Shown: positions 272-62,979 of the stretch, piece after piece
Layout of the letters: every line of letters starts with the position of its first letter
Position numbering within the stretch: position 1 is the stretch's first letter
Assembly: GCA_963971285.1 (NCBI GenBank)
Contig: OZ020254.1
Location: forward strand, 10,788,001 to 10,852,000
Direction of reading: 5' to 3'
Source: Astropecten irregularis
Taxonomy: Eukaryota; Echinodermata; Asteroidea; Paxillosida; Astropectinidae
DNA: 64,000 nucleotides
Translations under genes and position numbers: made by a program
Notes under the pieces: generated by a model
What the model was told of the DNA's origin: nothing
Seen by the model: only the letters and a program-made list of their open reading frames with translations
The model's database searches: none

Positions 272-3200
272 GTATGTTCTTTCTAGTTCTTGTAAAGATG
301 AAAGTTCAATCAGCATTTGTAGATTTTGTGCACATAACAAAGCCTAAAAGTTATTCAACAGAAATTTTGTTTTAAAGATTTTTTTTTTTTACAAAGTTAG
401 GTTTTCCCTGTGCAGTACATTCTGTGATGTATTCATAGCACAATGCTCGGGATGTTGGAGAGTCCATAAGCAAACAAAAACCAATCATTAGCTAGTGCTA
501 AGATGGGGTTCGAACTCGGGACCTCCAGCCTTTAAGAACACCTCCAGCTAGACCACCGAACTCTAGCCAATATGAATCATGTATGATATAAACAAATCAA
601 CAGTATCAGTGCAGTCCTGTTATGTACTACTGTAATTGTCTTAGAATCTCTTCTCTTTTTCAATTTTTTATCCTAGATGTCAACGGCACAAGTCGTCCAG
701 AGAATGTGGCAGATTGTCAAGGAAAGAGACTTGAGGGTAAGTGTGAAGATCAGGAGTTGACATGAGTTCGTCATTTTGACTCCTCCAGTCCTCAACGTCC
801 AAGACTCCTTTTTGTTTTAGGTATTATCATACTTTGGTTGGAAACCAAAACAGAAATGTTCACAGATTTGCCTATAACTTACAGGGTATAAAGATGGTGA
901 TGGTAGAAACATACCGTTAATATTGTTCTACATAAAATGCTGTATTTATCCAGAAAAGAATAAGACCAATTGACCTAGAACAATTTTGATCTTCGGAATA
1001 TCAAAATAATCTGTGAAAAGATTTTAAAATATCGTGGGCTTTTTTCACTGTTTTCTCAAAAAGTGGGCACCGTGTGGACCCAGGACATTTCACAGATGAC
1101 TGTTACTGTATCTCTCTTTATATTTTTGCCCATGAATCTGCATTTCTTTGACAAAAACCAAAGTATGAAATTACCTTTAAAAGCAGCATGTCCAAACTGT
1201 ACAATGTTAATTTGAAAAAACATATCCTCCACAAAAGTCATGAAATACCGTACTAAGCATAATTTGTAATTTTTTAGATGGTGTATGTGAGTATCAATTG
1301 GCAAATTTTTATTGTGGCCAAATTCACTAACACTAATGGTTGTAGGAATCTTTTTAGCTGTAAGGAACTTCCTGCGGCAAGCTATGCAGGAAAAAATGAT
1401 TTTTTGAACAGAGATTTAAAGGGTCGAGAAACAAAGTTCAAGATCTTCTTCAGGAGAAATCCATGCATTGTTGCAGCAGAGAGTTAATGACCCTTTACTG
1501 AATTGATTTGTCAAACTTTCAGGACCCAAGTAACAAGCAGTTTCACATCTGCGACGAACAACTCTTGAAAGTTTTTGGTAAGTCCCATCTTGCAAATGCT
1601 TCATTATTTTGTGTTGGTTTGTTTCCTAAAGAGTGTTAAGGATAGATAATCATAACAATTTTGACAATGCAAGCAGTGGATTTCATAACTGAAAGAAATT
1701 CTACATGATGCCACACTCATGAAATCAGTGCACATTCACTGTTGTGATAATAATTATTGGAGTGCTGGGGTGTGATGGCGCCCTCTGTAGTCCTCTTCTA
1801 GTTATTATATTGGGTCACTGGGCCAGGGGCCTGTGAACATTGATTTTTTATCCACTACACAGAGTCATCATGCTCGGAGTTAGGGGTTGGGGGCCTGACA
1901 TTTCGATCCTAGCAGGATCTTTCTCAAAGAGTCATTATTTTGAAGGCTCTCTCAATAATGACTATCTGTAAAATGTCAGCTTAGGCTCGAATTTCAGGAT
2001 CACTTTGAGTTTCAGCTCCATCTTATATTCATTTTAAAGTGGCGGGTATGTCAAAATTGTTGATTTTTGGCCATTCACTACATTTCATGGTAGAATATTT
2101 GTTTTGAACAAGAAAACAGAGTTGCAGTTTGCAAAATACCACAAGATGTAGGCCTATTTTCAGCATTTGAATGACAGAAACATTTCATGAATCCATCCTA
2201 AAATAACGGGTATCAAAAAAGAGGCTTTTGCCTGCGGTTCGGAAGTAGCTTCTCTGGTTTGGAAAGGAAAACAGAGCTACAGTACAGCTTCAATGAAAAA
2301 CCACAACCTATCATTTTGAGCATTATGGATGACAGTGCTGGAGCCTGAGCCTGAGCCTCCGTTTCTTAAATGCTCATAGTCTGAGGCCAAGCCAAGATTA
2401 CAACATTGAAATTGTGTTATATTGAGAGACTGCAGTGTGCCACTTGAAAAGGAAAACAGAGCTACAGTACAGCTTCAATGAAAAACCACAACCTATCATT
2501 TTGAGCATTATGGATGACAGAGCTGGAGCCTGAGCCTCCGTTTCTTAAATGCTCATAGTCTGAGGACAAGCTGAGATAACAACATGGAAATTGTGTTATA
2601 TTGAGAGACTGCAGTGTGCCACTTGGAAAGGAAAACAGAGCTACAGTACAGCTTCAATGAAAAACCACAACCTATCATTTTGAGCATTATGGATGACAGA
2701 GCTGGAGCCTGAGCCTGAGCCTCCGTTTCTTAAATGCTCATAGTCTGAGGACAAGCTGAGATTACAACATTGAAATTGTGTTATATTGAGAGACTGCAGT
2801 GTGCCACTTGGAAAGGAAAACAGAGCTACAGTACAGCTTCAATGAAAAACCACAACCTATCATTTTGAGCATTATGGATGACAGAGCTGGAGCCTGAGCC
2901 TCCGTTTCTTAAATGCTCATAGTCTGAGGACAAGCTGAGATTACAACATGGAAATTGTGTTATATTGAGAGACTGCAGTGTGCCACTTGGAAAGGAAAAC
3001 AGAGCTACAGTACAGCTTCAATGAAAAACCACAACCTATCATTTTGAGCATTATGGATGACAGAGCTGGAGCCTGAGCCTGAGCCTCCGTTTCTTAAATG
3101 CTCATAGTCTGAGGCCAAGCTGAGATTACAACATTGAAATTGTGTTATATTGAGAGACAGATGTGTGACACTTGAAAACAATTGGGATTTCAAGCCTTAC

Positions 3201-12761: not shown

Positions 12762-13795
12762 CATGAGCCTCCCTAAATGGCAGATGTTCTCAGGTTTGTT
12801 TTCAGAAATAGTTATTGGGATAAAGATTGTCATTAATTTTGAACGGCCAATCACCTCATGGTTATCGATAAGTTCCAAAATAAGACCTAATAGGTGACAT
12901 CATGTCCAGATGCATGGGTAAACGAACTTGTATATTTTTATACGATTGTAAGTCTTAGATACTTTACAAAGATATTTTGTGACAAATGTGATAACAGGGC
13001 AATTGTGACAAATATTTTGTATTCGACGTTACCCAAAAGCATTTAAAACTTCACTTAGAAGAGTTATTCTTTGTCAATCTGTCAGTGTGATTTTTTTGTT
13101 AATATTAGCATTATTTAATATGAAAAGTAAATTATAAAGGAAATTCCAGCAAGTTAAGTTATATATAGCTTGTTACTGATAAATTATATCTACACTAAAA
13201 GTTTGCCAAAAGCAACAGACAGCGTACCTTTAACCTTCTCCGAGTTTTTATAACTCTGGTGGAATTTTCTCTGGCTGTGTGCTGATTTGGTGGTCAGGAA
13301 TAAACGTATCGCAAGTTAAGACGAAGAAAATCCGAAAACAGTAGGAGTTCAATAGGTACTGTTCTATACTGTGCTACTGGAATTACATCAAGTTTTGTCA
13401 TAAAATGAAACAGGTTATGTTGCTAAGTTTATTTTTAAGAGGCTTTTCCAGTAGAAAATCCTCTTTTGTGTTCAAAGATTAATAAACCAGTGCAGAAGGC
13501 ACAGAAATATAATATAAGCTGGGAATATGTGGATCGGTTTGCGGAAACACCATGTAATAATCGTTCGTACTTTCGCACTTTTATATCGTTCGCACTTCTC
13601 GTAATTAGGTCTCAAGGTTTCGACTAGCCTGCTCTAGTCCTCATCAAGCTGGGAATAATTTGAGCCTCTGATACAGTTTACTGGGATAAGGTACAAAATA
13701 ATGGCATTTGAATAAAAATTACACAGATGAAAGAATATACAAGTAATAAACTAATGCAAACTGCTCACCAGCCAAAATAATGACCTGAAATCAAA

Positions 13796-13923
13796 TGCTT
13801 GGAGCTAGGGCCTGTAGCATTTCAATCCTAGCAGGATCTTTGTTGAAGGCAAAAAGCCTTTTAGTCTTCGATAAAGATCGTGCTAGCTAGGATCGAATTA
13901 GGTCAGGCCCTCAACTCCAAGCA
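13796..13923. mobile_element. Hairpin family F (128 bp, MITE-like)
   Basis: The left arm TGCTTGGAGCTAGGGCCTG... and the right arm ...CAGGCCCTCAACTCCAAGCA pair imperfectly over about 45 bases. Inner arms are CCTAGCAGGATCTTT and AAAGATCGTGCTAGCTAGG. A related half copy is at 1866-1930. Confidence 0.65.
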
Positions 13924-14581
13924 GATAAAAGTCTGTTCACAACAGCAAAATAAGGATTTTTCATTCATGTCCGTCGATTGTGTTGAAAAAACGGCTTCTG
14001 AATTGATTATAATACATTATGCGACCTTTAAATCTTTCAAAAGGGAACAAAAAAAATCTGCATAGAATTTGCAACAGATTTACAACTGTGTTTTCATCTA
14101 AAGTAGGTCAACATATTGACCTGCCATTAGTGAGCATTATACAAAATTTATTCTCAGTACTTTGTGTTGCAAGTCAATGACTTTGCTGGATGGAGTGTGG
14201 CATATTGGAATGAAGTTGAAGGGCCCTTTAGCCGCTTTGAAGAGAATTTTAATTAATGACTTCTTCAGCCTGGGCTTTGTTTTGAAGTAGGTCTGTTCTT
14301 TTTTTTGTGCAGGCTGGCCATATGGACTGGTCAGCTTTTTATACATGTGTATGTGTGGATTTTGATGAGCTCTCCAACACTAGTTCCGTTATGCAGCTGT
14401 TACTAGAATTTGAATTATAATGGTAGCTCGATTGAGTCACACCATTATGTGTATTGTATAACTTGTTCGTACTGTACCAGCAAAAAGATGCTCGTTACAC
14501 GATCTATGGCTTTATGTTCTCTCTACCCCCTCTTGGTACAGAATCAGTAAGGACCAAAATAGTGGACTGATTATAAACAAG

Positions 14582-50340: not shown

Positions 50341-53300
50341 ACGCCCAGCTGTTAGCACCAAAACATCAACAAACCTGCAACGTGCTCGCTGCTGTGATGT
50401 GGACGTGTATACTACATACATATTGCCATGCTGGCCTGTTCGTTTTATTATTATTGCGTGTAAAACCAATGGAGTTCAATTCCTCGCACGCGATCCATTC
50501 GTATCAACGTTGTATTTCAACGTGCTTACGTGTCAAGGGTATTTACATACAAAAAACTGCGTGAGAGCTATATTTCATTTAATGTGGACCCGTACCCCCA
50601 AACATCTAGCTTTTGTGGACGAATTGAACCATTTCCTCTGCCTAGCTTGCAATTTCATAGAGCTATTCGGTCACAGCCATTTACGGGTAAATAAATATTT
50701 TATTAGACGGCGTTTTTGTTACGTTCGTTCGTATGGCGCAGCGGTTTACAGATCATAAACAACACTGGGCTGAATTAGCTTGAATTAGCTGAATTGTTTT
50801 GGCCAGTGCATACATTGTTTGCTCATGCCCAATTTATGTGAAACTGATCGAGTATTTCTGTAAATGTGCACTACGAAATTATAGATAAGAGGGGAAAAGG
50901 TGATCAAATAAGTCACGCGATTGTCGTGTTGCTGGTATAGCGACATTTCGGCTGCTGGAACTGCTAGCCTTTACTACAATTCCCTTAATCGAGAAATTTT
51001 AGGCCTATATGTACATATTGCAATCCCAACCTCTATTCGTTCTCAGCTATGCAATGGCCCTGACCTTGGTTGCAAAAAAAAAAACTCCACAAAAATACCA
51101 CGTATTATTGTACCCCCTGTTGGGCTTTCACATTGCAAAATACTTCATTCATAAAACATGCCGATCTCGACTGTATATATCACACTCAGTGTACAGCGCA
51201 ATAATACCACACATGACCATGACAGCGCTATGATTGGATTCACCGGAGTTGATACAATCCGCTATAATGGGCATCGAATATGTCATTGTTTCGAAAATTA
51301 GAAAACAGGTGTCCCGAATTAAGCACATGGTGTAGTTGATGCACGCGATATCGAACCACGACGGTCGTCAAAAAACGTGGTATAATCGATTATTTATTGG
51401 TCGGTTGCTGATGATCGATTTTGTACCATTTTGGCCAATTAATATGTTACTGGTAACATATGAATTTTTTTCTTTACATAATTCAAAGTCTTATCATGAC
51501 ATGGTCTTCTGGTTCCAAACTAAAAACATGCAAACGGAGAGGAAACGAGTTTTACCATAATGTAATGCCATTGCAGCACTGGGTAAATGCAACATTTCCT
51601 CAGAGACAAATGTACCATTCAATTTTAATTTGTCTATTTTGTCAAAAGGTTTTTTGCTTTAATTTCACACTAGCATTGGAAGATTTCAATTCTGACCATT
51701 ACACACTATATATATTGTCCCCCACCCCATAAAAGAAATAAATCTTTAGGCTGGATGTAAAACAAACAGAAATCGTTTCTGTGCAACCTATAATAAAACT
51801 GCAGGGTTAAATTGACGAGTCTCCAAAACACAGCATCTACAAAGGTCAATGCTCCACAACTTTCATTTACAAGGGTAATTTTGTGTCCCCCCTTGAAGTA
51901 TATCTCATCTTGACCCCTGTGTCAGGTGAAAATTATGAAGAGCAATCTGAAGTATAGACGCCAGTTTGATGTTCGCCGTGTAAGCATATAAAGTCGTTTT
52001 ATTTGCGAACGTGACTTCACCCAGTGGCCGACAAATAAACCGGCATTCAACATAAATACAGCGAATCGATATGAGCAGCAAATAAATATATGCGCGGCCT
52101 TCTGGCGGGATTACTACATCGATTTCAAGGAGATTTTTTTTTTGGTAACCGGTTTGACTAGGCCTACTTAGAGGATAAAAAAATATAATTATGGTTTCTC
52201 AGTTTAAGACTGTAAGCAAACCGTCATTTTGCATAATGATGGGTCAGGCAGTAGTCCTCCAGCCAGGTGACGGCTGGCATATTGGTTCTCACGTGTCTGT
52301 GGTTCGAATCCCCCTATGCCGTCGATATTATGTTAGGCTCCGATCGCCGGAACACGGTTTTGAGTGTATTTTGTCATCTTCAATGAAAAACAAGATAATC
52401 GATTTCTTCATTGTCCACAGCGCCCCCCTGCGTTGGTGAGGGTCATCGAAATTTTGCACACGTGCACGAAACAAAACAAGACAAGACAAGACGGTGAAAG
52501 GGGGGGGGGCAGTCTCCATCCAACATGGTGACTGAGTGATAATGAAGTATTTATATTATATCAACCGTTATGTAACGCGTGGGATCATAATGAAATTCAA
52601 TTCATCAGCTCACAGTTCCTTCGACGCCATACACACGTGAAAAGATGACGTCATTATGTGCTTTACATACGCACTAAAACCTACAAATCAAAGGTCATAT
52701 AGCTATTATATTAAACACACACTCACTAGCCACCTGCAAAATGTGTATAATTCTCCGCTCCGGTAATTATAACAGCGGCATAATGTCACGTTTTAGTCAT
52801 AATACAAACACAGGCCTCATTATAGTGGCCGAGGTTTCTTACCTGTGAATTGCATTTTATGAACCGGGTATAGAGGACAAACTGGCATATATGGCCTACC
52901 TAAAATAAATTTCATTGAAAAGTTTTCCCTTGTGGTTATTTCACGAATAAAATAAATTTCATTAAAAAGTGAACACAGAAAAATGTACTGGGCGGGATTC
53001 GAACCGGCGACCTCCTGAATATCACATACAGCCGCTCTACCAACTGAGCTCCAATGGAGGTCGCCGGTTTGAATCCCGCTCCAGTCAATTTTTCACTTTT
53101 CAATTACTTTAATTTCAGTCAGTTTCCATTGTGGTTATTTGATGCTTAAAATAAATTTCACAAGAAATTTCATGCACATGAGAAAGACAGTTCAATAATT
53201 GGAATGTACAGCCGGCCCCCTTGAAGAAACTTGAATTTGCACCAAGGCTCAATATATTGAAGCTTGTTTTGTTTTCCCATAGAAGTTCCCTCTTTCAAAA

Positions 53301-60270: not shown

Positions 60271-60724
60271 CCTGGGGCCGATTTCACTAACGCTTTGCGA
60301 TCATCGCTAAGCCCAAATCCATCGCTAAACGGGAAATTGATCGCTACTTTGTGTAGGAATTTTCCGTTTAGCGATGGATTTGGGCCTAGCGATGATCGCA
60401 AAACGTTAGTGAAATCGACCCCTGGGGCCCATTTCACTAACGTTTGAGATCATCGCTAAAGCCCAAATCCATCGCTAAACGGAAAATCAATCGCTATTTT
60501 GCGTAGCAATTTTCTTTTTAGCGATGGATTTGGGCTTTACGATGATCGCAAAGCGTTAGTGAAATCGGCTCCTGGGGCCGATTTCACTAACGTTTTAGAT
60601 CATCGTAAAGCCCAAATTCATCGCTAAACGGAAAATTGCTACGCACAGTAGCGATCAATTTCCCGTTTAGCGATGGGTTTGGGCTTAGCGATGATCGCAA
60701 AGCGTTAGTGAAATCGGCCCCAGG
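60271..60724. mobile_element. Family D: three tandem 150-bp palindromes, third centre inverted
   Basis: Units start at 60274, 60424 and 60574, exactly 150 bases apart. Each is a long hairpin whose arms read GGCCGATTTCACTAACG..., GATCATCGCTAAGCCCAAAT, CCATCGCTAAACGG and back. Units are joined by CCTGGGGCC. The loop reads GAAATTGATCGCTAC... in unit 1, similarly in unit 2, and as its reverse complement in unit 3. No coding capacity. Confidence 0.9.
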
Positions 60725-61306: not shown

Positions 61307-62087
61307 TATAAAAGATGAATGTATCACACAAACCTTTCTTCACCAAATGAGAGGTTACTGTCATATTATATTCTTTCATTATATATTCATAGATATTAAA
61401 TTTGGTAAATTATAAAGATATAAAATTGCATAATATTAAATTAAAAGTACAAAATTATAAAAGTACATAAATATTCTGTTAAATCACACAAAATTCACCC
61501 CAAGAACATTTTTCATGGTGGCAAGAGTTAATCACATTATTGTCAGTGTATATTCACTATAAATTCATCTTTTTATCGGAGTGTTGTCGGAGATGCAGCT
61601 AAAATCCCTAAAAAAAATGATGAATTTTTTGTACACTATAGCACATTTAATATTCTGGCTTTGATATTATAACCAAAAAGTGAAAACGGTTGTACCCAAC
61701 TAATAAGGAGGTTGGGGGGGATTTTAAACACCCAAGTGTGTCCAGCCGCCCCCCCCCCCCCAAAAAAAAACCCACAAAATCCCTCCCAAATGTGTCCCCC
61801 CAAAAAATGGTGGACAAAAACACTGGATCTTTTTAGTTATTTTGCACCAATTATTTGAAAAACACACTGTATAGGTATAGGTTGCTTTTCTACTACTAAT
61901 AAAACATAGTAGATGCAAGTGTAAGAAGATGACGTCATATGCAAAAGGTCTAGCTAGGCTAAAATATTAGCTCTTCTAGTGCCCCAAAATATATTCCATT
62001 TCTTATAATTATAGGCTTTGTAGACAACAAACTACCTTTATGATAAGAATGTTGAGAAATGTTGAGTTTTTCCAGTGTTAAACTAAT

Positions 62088-62478
62088 TTATAATAAAAGT
62101 CATTGAAAAGTGAACAAAGAAAAATTGAATGGAGCGGGATTCGAACCGGCGACCTCCTGAACACCATACAGGCGCTCTACCAACTGAGCTGTCCAGCCCT
62201 ACGTTGGTGGTGACCCCAATAGTCAATTATCTTTGTTCGTTTGGCAGTCAGAAGCCATGAAACCACGCACACACCGCCATACCCCAGGGATCGCAACCTG
62301 GGAACGGTACATGGGGGATCACTCAAAGATTAAGAGGATACGGCTTTTTAATTAATATAATCATCAAATAACCACAAGGGAAACTGACTGAATTTTTCTT
62401 TGTTCACTTTTCAATGACTTTAAATTCAGTCAGTTTCCCTTGTGGTTATTTGATGATTATATTATTATAATAAAAGTC
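62088..62478 (-). mobile_element. tRNA-related SINE-like element with perfect hairpin and 14-bp flanking repeats
   Basis: TTATAATAAAAGTC occurs at 62088-62101 and again at 62465-62478, flanking the element like a target-site duplication. Inside are a tRNA-like cloverleaf (62127-62198, minus strand) and a perfect 43-base inverted repeat (62353-62395 with 62422-62464, loop 26 bases). Another inverted pair joins 62099-62126 to about 62391-62418, so the loop of one hairpin is an arm of the other. Related sequence lies at 52902-53160. Confidence 0.75.
62127..62198 (-). tRNA. tRNA-like 72-mer, probably SINE-borne pseudo-tRNA (anticodon position GGT)
   Basis: On the minus strand the 72 bases run GGCTGGA (acceptor 5'), CA, GCTC-loop-GAGC (D arm), CCTGT/ATGGTGT/TCAGG (anticodon arm, last pair mismatched), AGGTC, GCCGG/TTCGAAT/CCCGC (T arm, one mismatch), TCCATTC (acceptor 3'). 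Six of seven acceptor pairs can form. Anticodon GGT would be threonine. Its place in a repeated element and its mismatches argue for a pseudo-tRNA. Confidence 0.4.
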
Positions 62479-62593
62479 TTTGGTGCAATTTTCATGTGTG
62501 TGCATAATTTACAGCCTTTGTCAAATCACTGAGTTGCGTGAATTCGTCTGTGAACACAGCGGACAGGTACTGGAGAGTGGTCAAGGGCTTCAC

Positions 62594-62979
62594 TTTAAAG
62601 GGCATGTACAACATTGGTAAAGATTAGAGAGCTCAAAATCCACTTTGTCATGGAATAAAAACAAACCTGTGAAATTTTCAACGCAATTGATCATTGGAAA
62701 CAGTACAAAATGACCCCCAAAACAATGTAAATGTTGCGCCAAATTGTGTGGGAATAGCTGTCTCCTTTTTTTTTTTATCTTTCCACGAATAGATAAAAAA
62801 TCTTTTGGTGTTCGGTTTTACTCCTTTCTGGATAAATACAGCATTTCAGGCAGGTAAATGTTCACAGTACAATGCATGTTTCTACCATTGCGTCTTTAGT
62901 ACACCCTGTAAGTTAAATGTAAATCTGTGAACGTTTCTGTTTTGGTTTGTTACCAATGTTGTTGTACATGCCCTTTAAA
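62594..62979 (-). mobile_element. Family B element, full length, best preserved
   Basis: Left end TTTAAAGGGCATGTACAACA, right end GTTGTACATGCCCTTTAAA; the right copy has one extra GTTG. The interior holds CATGGAATAAAAACAAACCT, GATAAATACAGCATTTCAGG and GTGAACGTTTCTGTTTTGGT. It lies just downstream of the metallophosphoesterase stop codon. Confidence 0.85.

What the first reader, a model, noticed from the sequence alone, without database searches (positions are those of the whole stretch)
62088..62478. tRNA-like body plus a perfect 43-bp hairpin between 14-bp target duplications
The arms 62353-62395 and 62422-62464 are identical in reverse complement, which implies recent origin or active repair of the palindrome. 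A near-canonical tRNA cloverleaf lies in the same unit. The loop of the hairpin also pairs with 62099-62126, so two alternative folds are possible. A SINE that carries its own palindrome and can switch folds would be unusual.
Basis: partly seen in the sequence, partly recalled or inferred. Interest (0 to 1): 0.7.

Follow-up and report, generated by a model that had tools for sequence, protein, structure and literature searches.

The report
Penelope-type tRNA retroposon, hairpin by-product
The perfect hairpin is a scar left when one copy of a very common, tRNA-containing jumping sequence was written into the chromosome from both sides of the cut at once, most likely by a Penelope-type retrotransposon enzyme; it is not a built-in folding switch.

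Summary
In detail: perfect 43-bp arms, a tRNA-like sequence and 14-bp duplications. The interpretation changes. The unit is a ~320-bp tandem-type retroposon (tail 30-mer in 8,285 places of the 476-Mb genome). Of 136 RNA-3'-side outer ends in 104 inserts, 129 fall at two sites ~43 nt apart: A, with a 'tail', and B, without; RNA-5' ends are scattered. 38 inserts are inverted; 24 of these have A at one end and B at the other, as here. That is the Penelope-like element (PLE) signature: two internal RT start sites separated by a tail, both target strands extended (PMC11167929; PMC3846280). The genome holds many PLE copies with two-site ends of their own, and unit inserts are enriched at PLE 3' ends. 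The hairpin is thus an integration by-product: the tail was copied from each side of the break. The 'alternative fold' has the same cause. New would be a high-copy, tRNA-Thr-like, non-autonomous PLE-type retroposon. A second copy at 52962-53146 was missed. PLE mobilisation is inferred; no sequence shared with the sampled PLE was found.

The parts
62088..62101 (.). left 14-bp target duplication TTATAATAAAAGTC; its last 6 nt coincide with unit positions C1-C6 (possible microhomology)
62096..62395 (+). one full retroposon unit (C1-C320 of the family consensus, with a 26-bp gap and a 6-bp insertion); left border is 'end B'. RNA sense is taken as the minus strand
62126..62198 (-). tRNA-like part (family consensus tRNA-Thr(GGT)-like, with A and B box sequences)
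   Evidence: Rfam RF00005 45.1 bits; ARAGORN on the consensus; box counts
62120..62124 (-). run of five T just after the tRNA-like part in RNA sense: would be a Pol III terminator
   Evidence: sequence; T5 in 28 of 36 aligned units; terminator function recalled
62353..62395 (+). direct copy of the 43-nt 'tail' (C278-C320) = left arm of the hairpin
62391..62395 (.). AATTT shared by the direct and inverted parts: 5-bp microhomology at the inversion joint
   Evidence: coordinates of I1 and I2
62391..62421 (-). inverted copy of C1-C31, containing the hairpin loop; the source of the 'alternative fold'
62422..62464 (-). inverted copy of the tail, right arm; its outer border 62464 is 'end A' (C278)
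62465..62478 (.). right 14-bp target duplication
52962..53146 (.). second, more diverged copy of the same family: B end left, inverted part, A end right
52915..52947 (.). 33-bp miniature insert (start of the unit joined to an inverted tail) next to the former; TAAAATAAATTTCA stands three times, 52901-52914, 52948-52961, 53147-53160, so one target seems to have been used twice
13734..13922 (.). PLE 3'-end fragment pair, ends outward, in the same long-end/short-end arrangement as the unit

Best explanation
A high-copy, non-coding, ~320-bp tandem-type retroposon with a tRNA-Thr-like part, moved in trans by Penelope-like elements (PLEs) of the genome. RNA of more than one unit is bound by the PLE protein, which cuts an AT-rich target on both strands and starts reverse transcription inside the RNA at either of two sites ~43 nt apart (A and B). 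Here the right-hand target end was extended from site A (62464 inward, through the tail and C1-C31) and the left-hand end from site B (62096 inward, one whole unit including the tail). The two cDNAs were joined at 5 bp of microhomology (AATTT), leaving a tail on each side of the joint: the 43-bp palindrome. Gap filling made the 14-bp duplication. Shown here: copies, ends, inversions, duplications, PLEs with two-site ends, enrichment at PLE ends. Inferred: the PLE protein as agent, priming from both target ends, the order of steps, the source of multi-unit RNA.
For: Outer ends: of 136 RNA-3'-side ends, A 69 (C262-297), B 60 (C304-C32), other 7; of 72 RNA-5' ends 23 lie in those windows, as chance would give. 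Inversions: 38 of 104 inserts; of the 30 with A or B at both ends, AB 24, AA 2, BB 4. Duplications: 26 of 104 against 6 of 2,059 controls; in L053 the unit sits in a PLE with AGACTACAAAAG on both sides, once in the uninterrupted L066. Passes over the unit within an insert share non-consensus letters more often than passes of different inserts (22% direct, 14% inverted, 8% control). PLEs: 60 GIY-YIG matches over the cut-off (30 loci fetched); 25 of the 29 fetched loci other than L066 are 95-99% alike to L066; its frame has RT (E 9.6e-7) and GIY-YIG (E 5.5e-6). Of those 25, 15 end at q2172-2192, 8 at q2237-2243, 2 elsewhere. Four of 104 unit inserts lie within 13 bp of a PLE 3' end; expected 0.07 from the genome count of PLE ends or 0.16-0.24 from their density in the same flanks. 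Literature: PMC11167929 reports two adjacent internal RT start sites with the tail between them, and cleavage and extension of both strands; PMC3846280 reports inverted pLTRs, a tail on one of them, and TSDs.
Against: No sequence shared between unit and the sampled PLE family around the start sites: local score 27, reached by 195 of 500 shuffles. The PLE that would move it is thus not identified. RVT_1 scores just under Pfam's cut-off (29.1 vs 29.6). No RNA data. The A and B windows were set after seeing the data, so their probabilities are descriptive. In vitro, Frangieh et al. saw no difference in start site between strands, which does not predict the AB excess. 78 of 104 inserts show no duplication at the threshold used. 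LINEs were not surveyed. Loci were chosen as best matches or exact motif matches, so old copies are under-represented.
Confidence: 0.82

Rival explanations
1. Ordinary tRNA-derived SINE moved by a LINE; the inversion is L1-style twin priming (second primer anneals inside the RNA).
For: TSDs of 10-14 bp, 5' truncation, inversions, microhomology at the joint; twin priming is known for L1 (recalled).
Against: No common poly(A)-like run at the ends of the 31 loci printed; two discrete RNA-3' ends in about equal numbers, 69 and 60 of 136; tandem units with a constant junction; the tRNA-like part lies some 25-70 nt before the RNA 3' ends, not at the 5' end; inverted share 38 of 104; enrichment at PLE 3' ends. 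LINEs were not surveyed.
Confidence: 0.1
2. Retrozyme-like cycle: a ribozyme cuts multimeric RNA, monomers are circularised, and an RT (perhaps that of a PLE) runs round the circle. This may overlap with the best explanation as to the enzyme.
For: ~300-bp non-coding tandem monomers: one segment longer than 1.05 units in 28 of 40 loci (chosen by similarity to a full unit) and 3 of 16 (chosen by body motif); passes within an insert share variants; Cervera and de la Pena 2020 name PLEs as strong candidates for moving retrozymes.
Against: No hammerhead from Rfam in 61900-62600 or in 4 unit loci; but Rfam also gave none in PLE locus L066, and my own descriptor failed its PLE control, 0 of 30: inconclusive. 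Internal RT start on linear multi-unit RNA explains the data without a circle.
Confidence: 0.18
3. A fold-switching SINE that carries and maintains its palindrome.
For: Perfect arms and a second 31-nt complementarity.
Against: The unit lacks the palindrome; inversion breakpoints differ between inserts; arms of other inverted inserts are mostly imperfect; the minimum-energy fold keeps the hairpin and not the other pairing.
Confidence: 0.02
4. Fold-back DNA transposon, satellite, or assembly artefact.
For: Inverted ends and tandem units.
Against: Variable RNA-5' ends; target duplications far above control; the same architecture at dispersed loci; an insert inside a PLE with an uninterrupted PLE copy as empty site.
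Confidence: 0.02

Closest known systems
Penelope-like elements, GIY-YIG Penelope/Poseidon type (Arkhipova 2013 PMC3846280; Frangieh 2024 PMC11167929)
   Same: Tandem units; direct plus inverted terminal part; an optional tail on one end; two RT start sites; TSD; insertion at PLE junctions among other places
   Different: No ORF seen in the unit; ~320-bp unit; tRNA-like part; tail ~43 nt against 30-40 reported; no sequence shared with the one PLE family examined
Metazoan retrozymes (Cervera and de la Pena 2020, PMC7229834)
   Same: ~300-bp tandem units, non-autonomous, PLEs proposed as movers
   Different: Hammerhead ribozyme is their defining part and was not found here (test inconclusive); tRNA-like part is extra
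tRNA-derived SINEs moved by LINEs (recalled)
   Same: tRNA-like sequence with A and B boxes, TSD, thousands of copies
   Different: tRNA-like part near the RNA 3' side and followed by T5; no poly(A) seen; tandem units; two internal 3' ends
L1 twin priming (recalled)
   Same: Inverted insert made by priming from both target ends, with microhomology at the joint
   Different: Here both priming sites are fixed positions of the RNA

Membership tests
PLE-type (non-autonomous) retroposon | two discrete RT start sites separated by a ~30-40-bp tail | tested here: met
   A 69 and B 60 of 136 ends, ~43 nt apart; compare PMC11167929
PLE-type (non-autonomous) retroposon | inverted terminal parts with the tail on one of them | tested here: met
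   38 of 104 inverted; AB in 24 of the 30 with both ends classed
PLE-type (non-autonomous) retroposon | tandem or partial-tandem units | tested here: met
   28 of 40 loci; 3 of 16
PLE-type (non-autonomous) retroposon | target duplication and 5' truncation | tested here: met
   26 of 104 against 6 of 2,059 controls; scattered RNA-5' ends
PLE-type (non-autonomous) retroposon | shared sequence with an autonomous PLE partner (usual for such pairs, not a strict requirement) | tested here: inconclusive
PLE-type (non-autonomous) retroposon | movement by PLE protein | not testable with these tools
   needs protein and RNA assays
Retrozyme | hammerhead ribozyme in each unit | tested here: inconclusive
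   positive control failed
Retrozyme | circular RNA | not testable with these tools
   no RNA data
LINE-moved SINE | 3' tail shared with a LINE, or poly(A) | not tested
   LINEs were not surveyed; no common poly(A)-like run at the 31 loci printed
tRNA-derived SINE | tRNA-like part with A and B boxes | tested here: met
   Rfam; A box exact in 24 and B box exact in 21 of 36 units

The most novel reading that the evidence does not exclude
A tRNA-containing retroposon family parasitises PLEs without sharing their tail sequence, and its inserts show that the PLE complex uses its two start sites in a coordinated way: one target strand is extended from A and the other from B (24 of 30 inverted inserts with both ends classed), a one-tail rule not predicted by the published in vitro assay.
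Probability: 0.45. Interest if true: 0.68.

Novelty: new variant of a known kind. Interest (0 to 1): 0.5.

Why it matters
How PLEs, described as a third class of eukaryotic retroelements, complete an insertion is unsettled. A short family with thousands of non-coding copies is a natural record of PLE-type priming: fixed start sites, extension from both target ends, microhomology joints and reuse of one target can be counted. It would also be a case, beyond hammerhead retrozymes, of a small RNA that PLEs move in trans. For this locus it replaces an exotic reading (a folding switch) by an integration by-product.

Tried and rejected
Fold switch: rejected. Hammerhead: Rfam and two runs of a home-made descriptor gave none in the unit's RNA sense; one weak antisense match appeared at 3 mismatches and 5 of 76 loci had unrelated one-mismatch matches. 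The descriptor found the PLE's own motif in 0 of 30 loci at each setting, so nothing follows. Consensus RNA structure: RNAalifold gave 25 pairs, 3 with two-sided changes, covariation term -0.11: no good evidence for conserved structure. MicroRNA-family matches on the hairpin are all below gathering score. Similarity of the unit's A/B region to that of the PLE: none beyond chance. A PLE with the unit's own tail: of 20 loci chosen by the tail, 19 had unit sequence behind it and one (L122) the tail alone. The count of the C295-C17 junction, 2,785, is probably too low because an extra T is common there and the pattern search allows no indel; the tail count (C287-C316, 8,285) is used instead; body C132-C174 6,252, C267-C309 1,132; positions. 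These counts use different lengths and mismatch limits and are not strictly comparable. A wider search for duplications also caught repeats inside the element and is replaced. Rows dropped: inserts under 80 bp or within 12 bp of a locus end (L115 and L122 gave none), under 90 bp. Loci came by similarity to the window copy (39, best matches), body motif (36, exact) and tail motif (20, exact), plus the window; the tail choice favours A ends, and without it AB is 17 of 22. A lowered-threshold ARAGORN run was full of spurious calls and not used. Papers: PMC11167929, outline and parts 1-2 of 4 of the text; PMC3846280, 12 passages; PMC7229834, 12 passages and the Discussion; all others only as search listings with starts of abstracts. 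Searches for a PLE-moved tRNA SINE in print; the listings showed none, but the papers listed were not opened, the library lacks most subscription papers, and Repbase was not available.

Full report
What is there. The hairpin, the second complementarity, the tRNA-like sequence and the 14-bp duplications are all in the sequence at or very near the stated places. The 43-bp perfect inverted repeat is far beyond chance: ten shuffled windows give 11-13 bp.

What the unit is. The window lies in an unnamed 475.7-Mb eukaryote assembly. Searching that genome with 62088-62478 gave 179 matches from 40 scored of 4,193 candidates, so lower bounds. Many covered about query 9-308, that is 62096-62395, and several stood head to tail. 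This is one unit of a family; a consensus of 41 copies is 320 bp, 45.6% G+C. Coordinates C1-C320 refer to it. RNA sense is taken as the minus strand, that of the tRNA-like part. The tail 30-mer (up to 2 mismatches) occurs 8,285 times and a body 43-mer (up to 3) 6,252 times, with none for the reversed controls. ARAGORN reads the consensus tRNA-like part as Thr(GGT). In four sampled unit loci Rfam gives seven full-length tRNA matches of 28.7 to 52.8 bits, one of them just under the cut-off of 29, and one partial match of 24.5.

How copies end. I dissected 95 fetched loci and the window; 94 of these 96 gave 104 inserts. Ends on the RNA-3' side fall at two places: A, C262-297, 69 of 136, and B, C304-C32, 60 of 136; 7 lie elsewhere. 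Ends on the RNA-5' side are scattered (23 of 72 inside the same windows; chance 0.18). The stretch between A and B, about 43 nt, is the hairpin arm of the finding. Thirty-eight of 104 inserts contain an inversion. In the 30 whose two outer ends are both A or B, one is A and the other B in 24, with 2 AA and 4 BB (P 0.0007 against an even choice; 17 of 22, P 0.008, without tail-chosen loci). The window insert is of this kind: B at 62096, A at 62464.

Target duplications. With 22 bp of flank and 7 bp of the insert on each side, 26 of 104 inserts reach a score of 10 against 6 of 2,059 swapped-flank pairs. L053 is a clean case: the unit interrupts a PLE, with the 12 bp AGACTACAAAAG on both sides and once in the uninterrupted L066. 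At 52901-53160 the window holds a second insert of the family together with a 33-bp miniature one, and the 14-mer TAAAATAAATTTCA stands three times, so one target seems to have been used twice.

Why Penelope. The genome has 60 GIY-YIG matches over the cut-off, and a PLE 3'-end 43-mer in 2,372 places. Thirty loci were fetched; 25 of the 29 other than L066 are 95-99% identical to L066 over their match. Translation of L066, as it stands, has RT and GIY-YIG domains, the RT just under Pfam's gathering score. Of those 25, 15 stop matching L066 at q2172-2192, 8 at q2237-2243 and 2 elsewhere: two end positions about 60 nt apart. Among the 100 places listed, I count nine pairs of PLE 3' ends pointing outward at 61-113 bp spacing and none pointing inward within 150 bp. 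One such PLE pair, with one long and one short end and AGATGAAAG/AGATAAAAG beside it, lies in this window at 13734-13922. Four of 104 unit inserts lie within 13 bp of a PLE 3' end (L027, L097, L088, L126). The expectation is 0.07 from the genome count, which misses old PLE ends, or 0.16-0.24 from the density of PLE ends in the same flanks (P 0.0001 or less). Two of the 30 PLE-search loci have unit sequence within about 12 bp of the PLE 3' end (L052, L071). In L052 and L126 the unit's duplication abuts the PLE end. Frangieh et al. [quoted passage not shown] they propose that the complex nicks its own pLTR or other AT-rich sites. Arkhipova et al. 2013 (PMC3846280, passages) describe inverted pLTRs, a 31-bp tail optionally on one of them, and TSDs. 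The unit's copies fit this description.

How the palindrome arose. The left cDNA runs from B (62096) through a whole unit and ends with the tail; the right cDNA starts at A (62464), runs through the tail and then C1-C31; they join at AATTT. The tail is thus present once in each direction, and C1-C31 likewise, which gives both the hairpin and the 'alternative fold'. Identity of the arms fits a single RNA copied at one time and little time since; most other inverted inserts have diverged arms, though L023 and L112 keep stretches of 31-32 nt identical. Priming from both target ends and its order are inferred.

Tandem units. Within an insert, passes over the unit share non-consensus letters more often than between inserts (direct 22%, inverted 14%, control 8%); part of this may be subfamily membership. 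It fits one template RNA of several units, or a circle; I cannot tell them apart. The T5 run after the tRNA-like part (28 of 36 units) would be expected to stop Pol III before sites B and A (recalled), so it is not clear that the tRNA-like part drives the retro-RNA. Five of the 60 B ends lie at C25-C26, at the edge of that run.

What is known and what is new. The priming mechanism is known for PLEs, and retrozymes are a proposed non-autonomous PLE client (PMC7229834, Discussion). I saw no report of a tRNA-containing family of this kind in the listings, which do not cover Repbase or most subscription journals. The weak point is the partner: no sequence shared with the one PLE family examined. 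I therefore say that it works like a PLE client and very probably is one, with the partner not identified.

Noticed in passing
window 52901-53160: Second copy of the same family with a 33-bp miniature insert beside it and the same 14-bp target sequence three times: the same target apparently used twice.
   Followed up: yes
window 13725-13931: Short PLE insert made only of two outward 3' ends, one long and one short, with 9-bp flanks alike in 8 of 9.
   Followed up: partly
L027, L088, L097, L126, L115, L052, L071: Unit copies sit at or inside PLE 3'-end junctions more often than chance; in L115 a PLE 3' end stands between two parts of a unit.
   Followed up: partly
G000:C8:20019856-20035896: Six PLE 3' ends in a row on one strand, the last four 2,629-2,630 bp apart: looks like a PLE tandem array.
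   Followed up: no
window 60271-60721: Tandem array of a 150-bp unit (3 copies) in a region rich in perfect inverted repeats of 16-27 bp.
   Followed up: no
window 62816-62939 and 13 other places in the window: Abundant unrelated dispersed repeat; the copy near 62830 contains CTGGATAAATACAGCATTTCAGG. It also lies downstream of the PLE in L066.
   Followed up: no
window 2259-3180: Tandem array of a ~179-185-bp unit, 5 copies, 93-94% matches.
   Followed up: no
family alignment A1, columns 101-168: Middle of the unit is hypervariable with many different deletions (identity to consensus 0.90, gap fraction 0.16), while the other regions stand at 0.94-0.96.
   Followed up: partly
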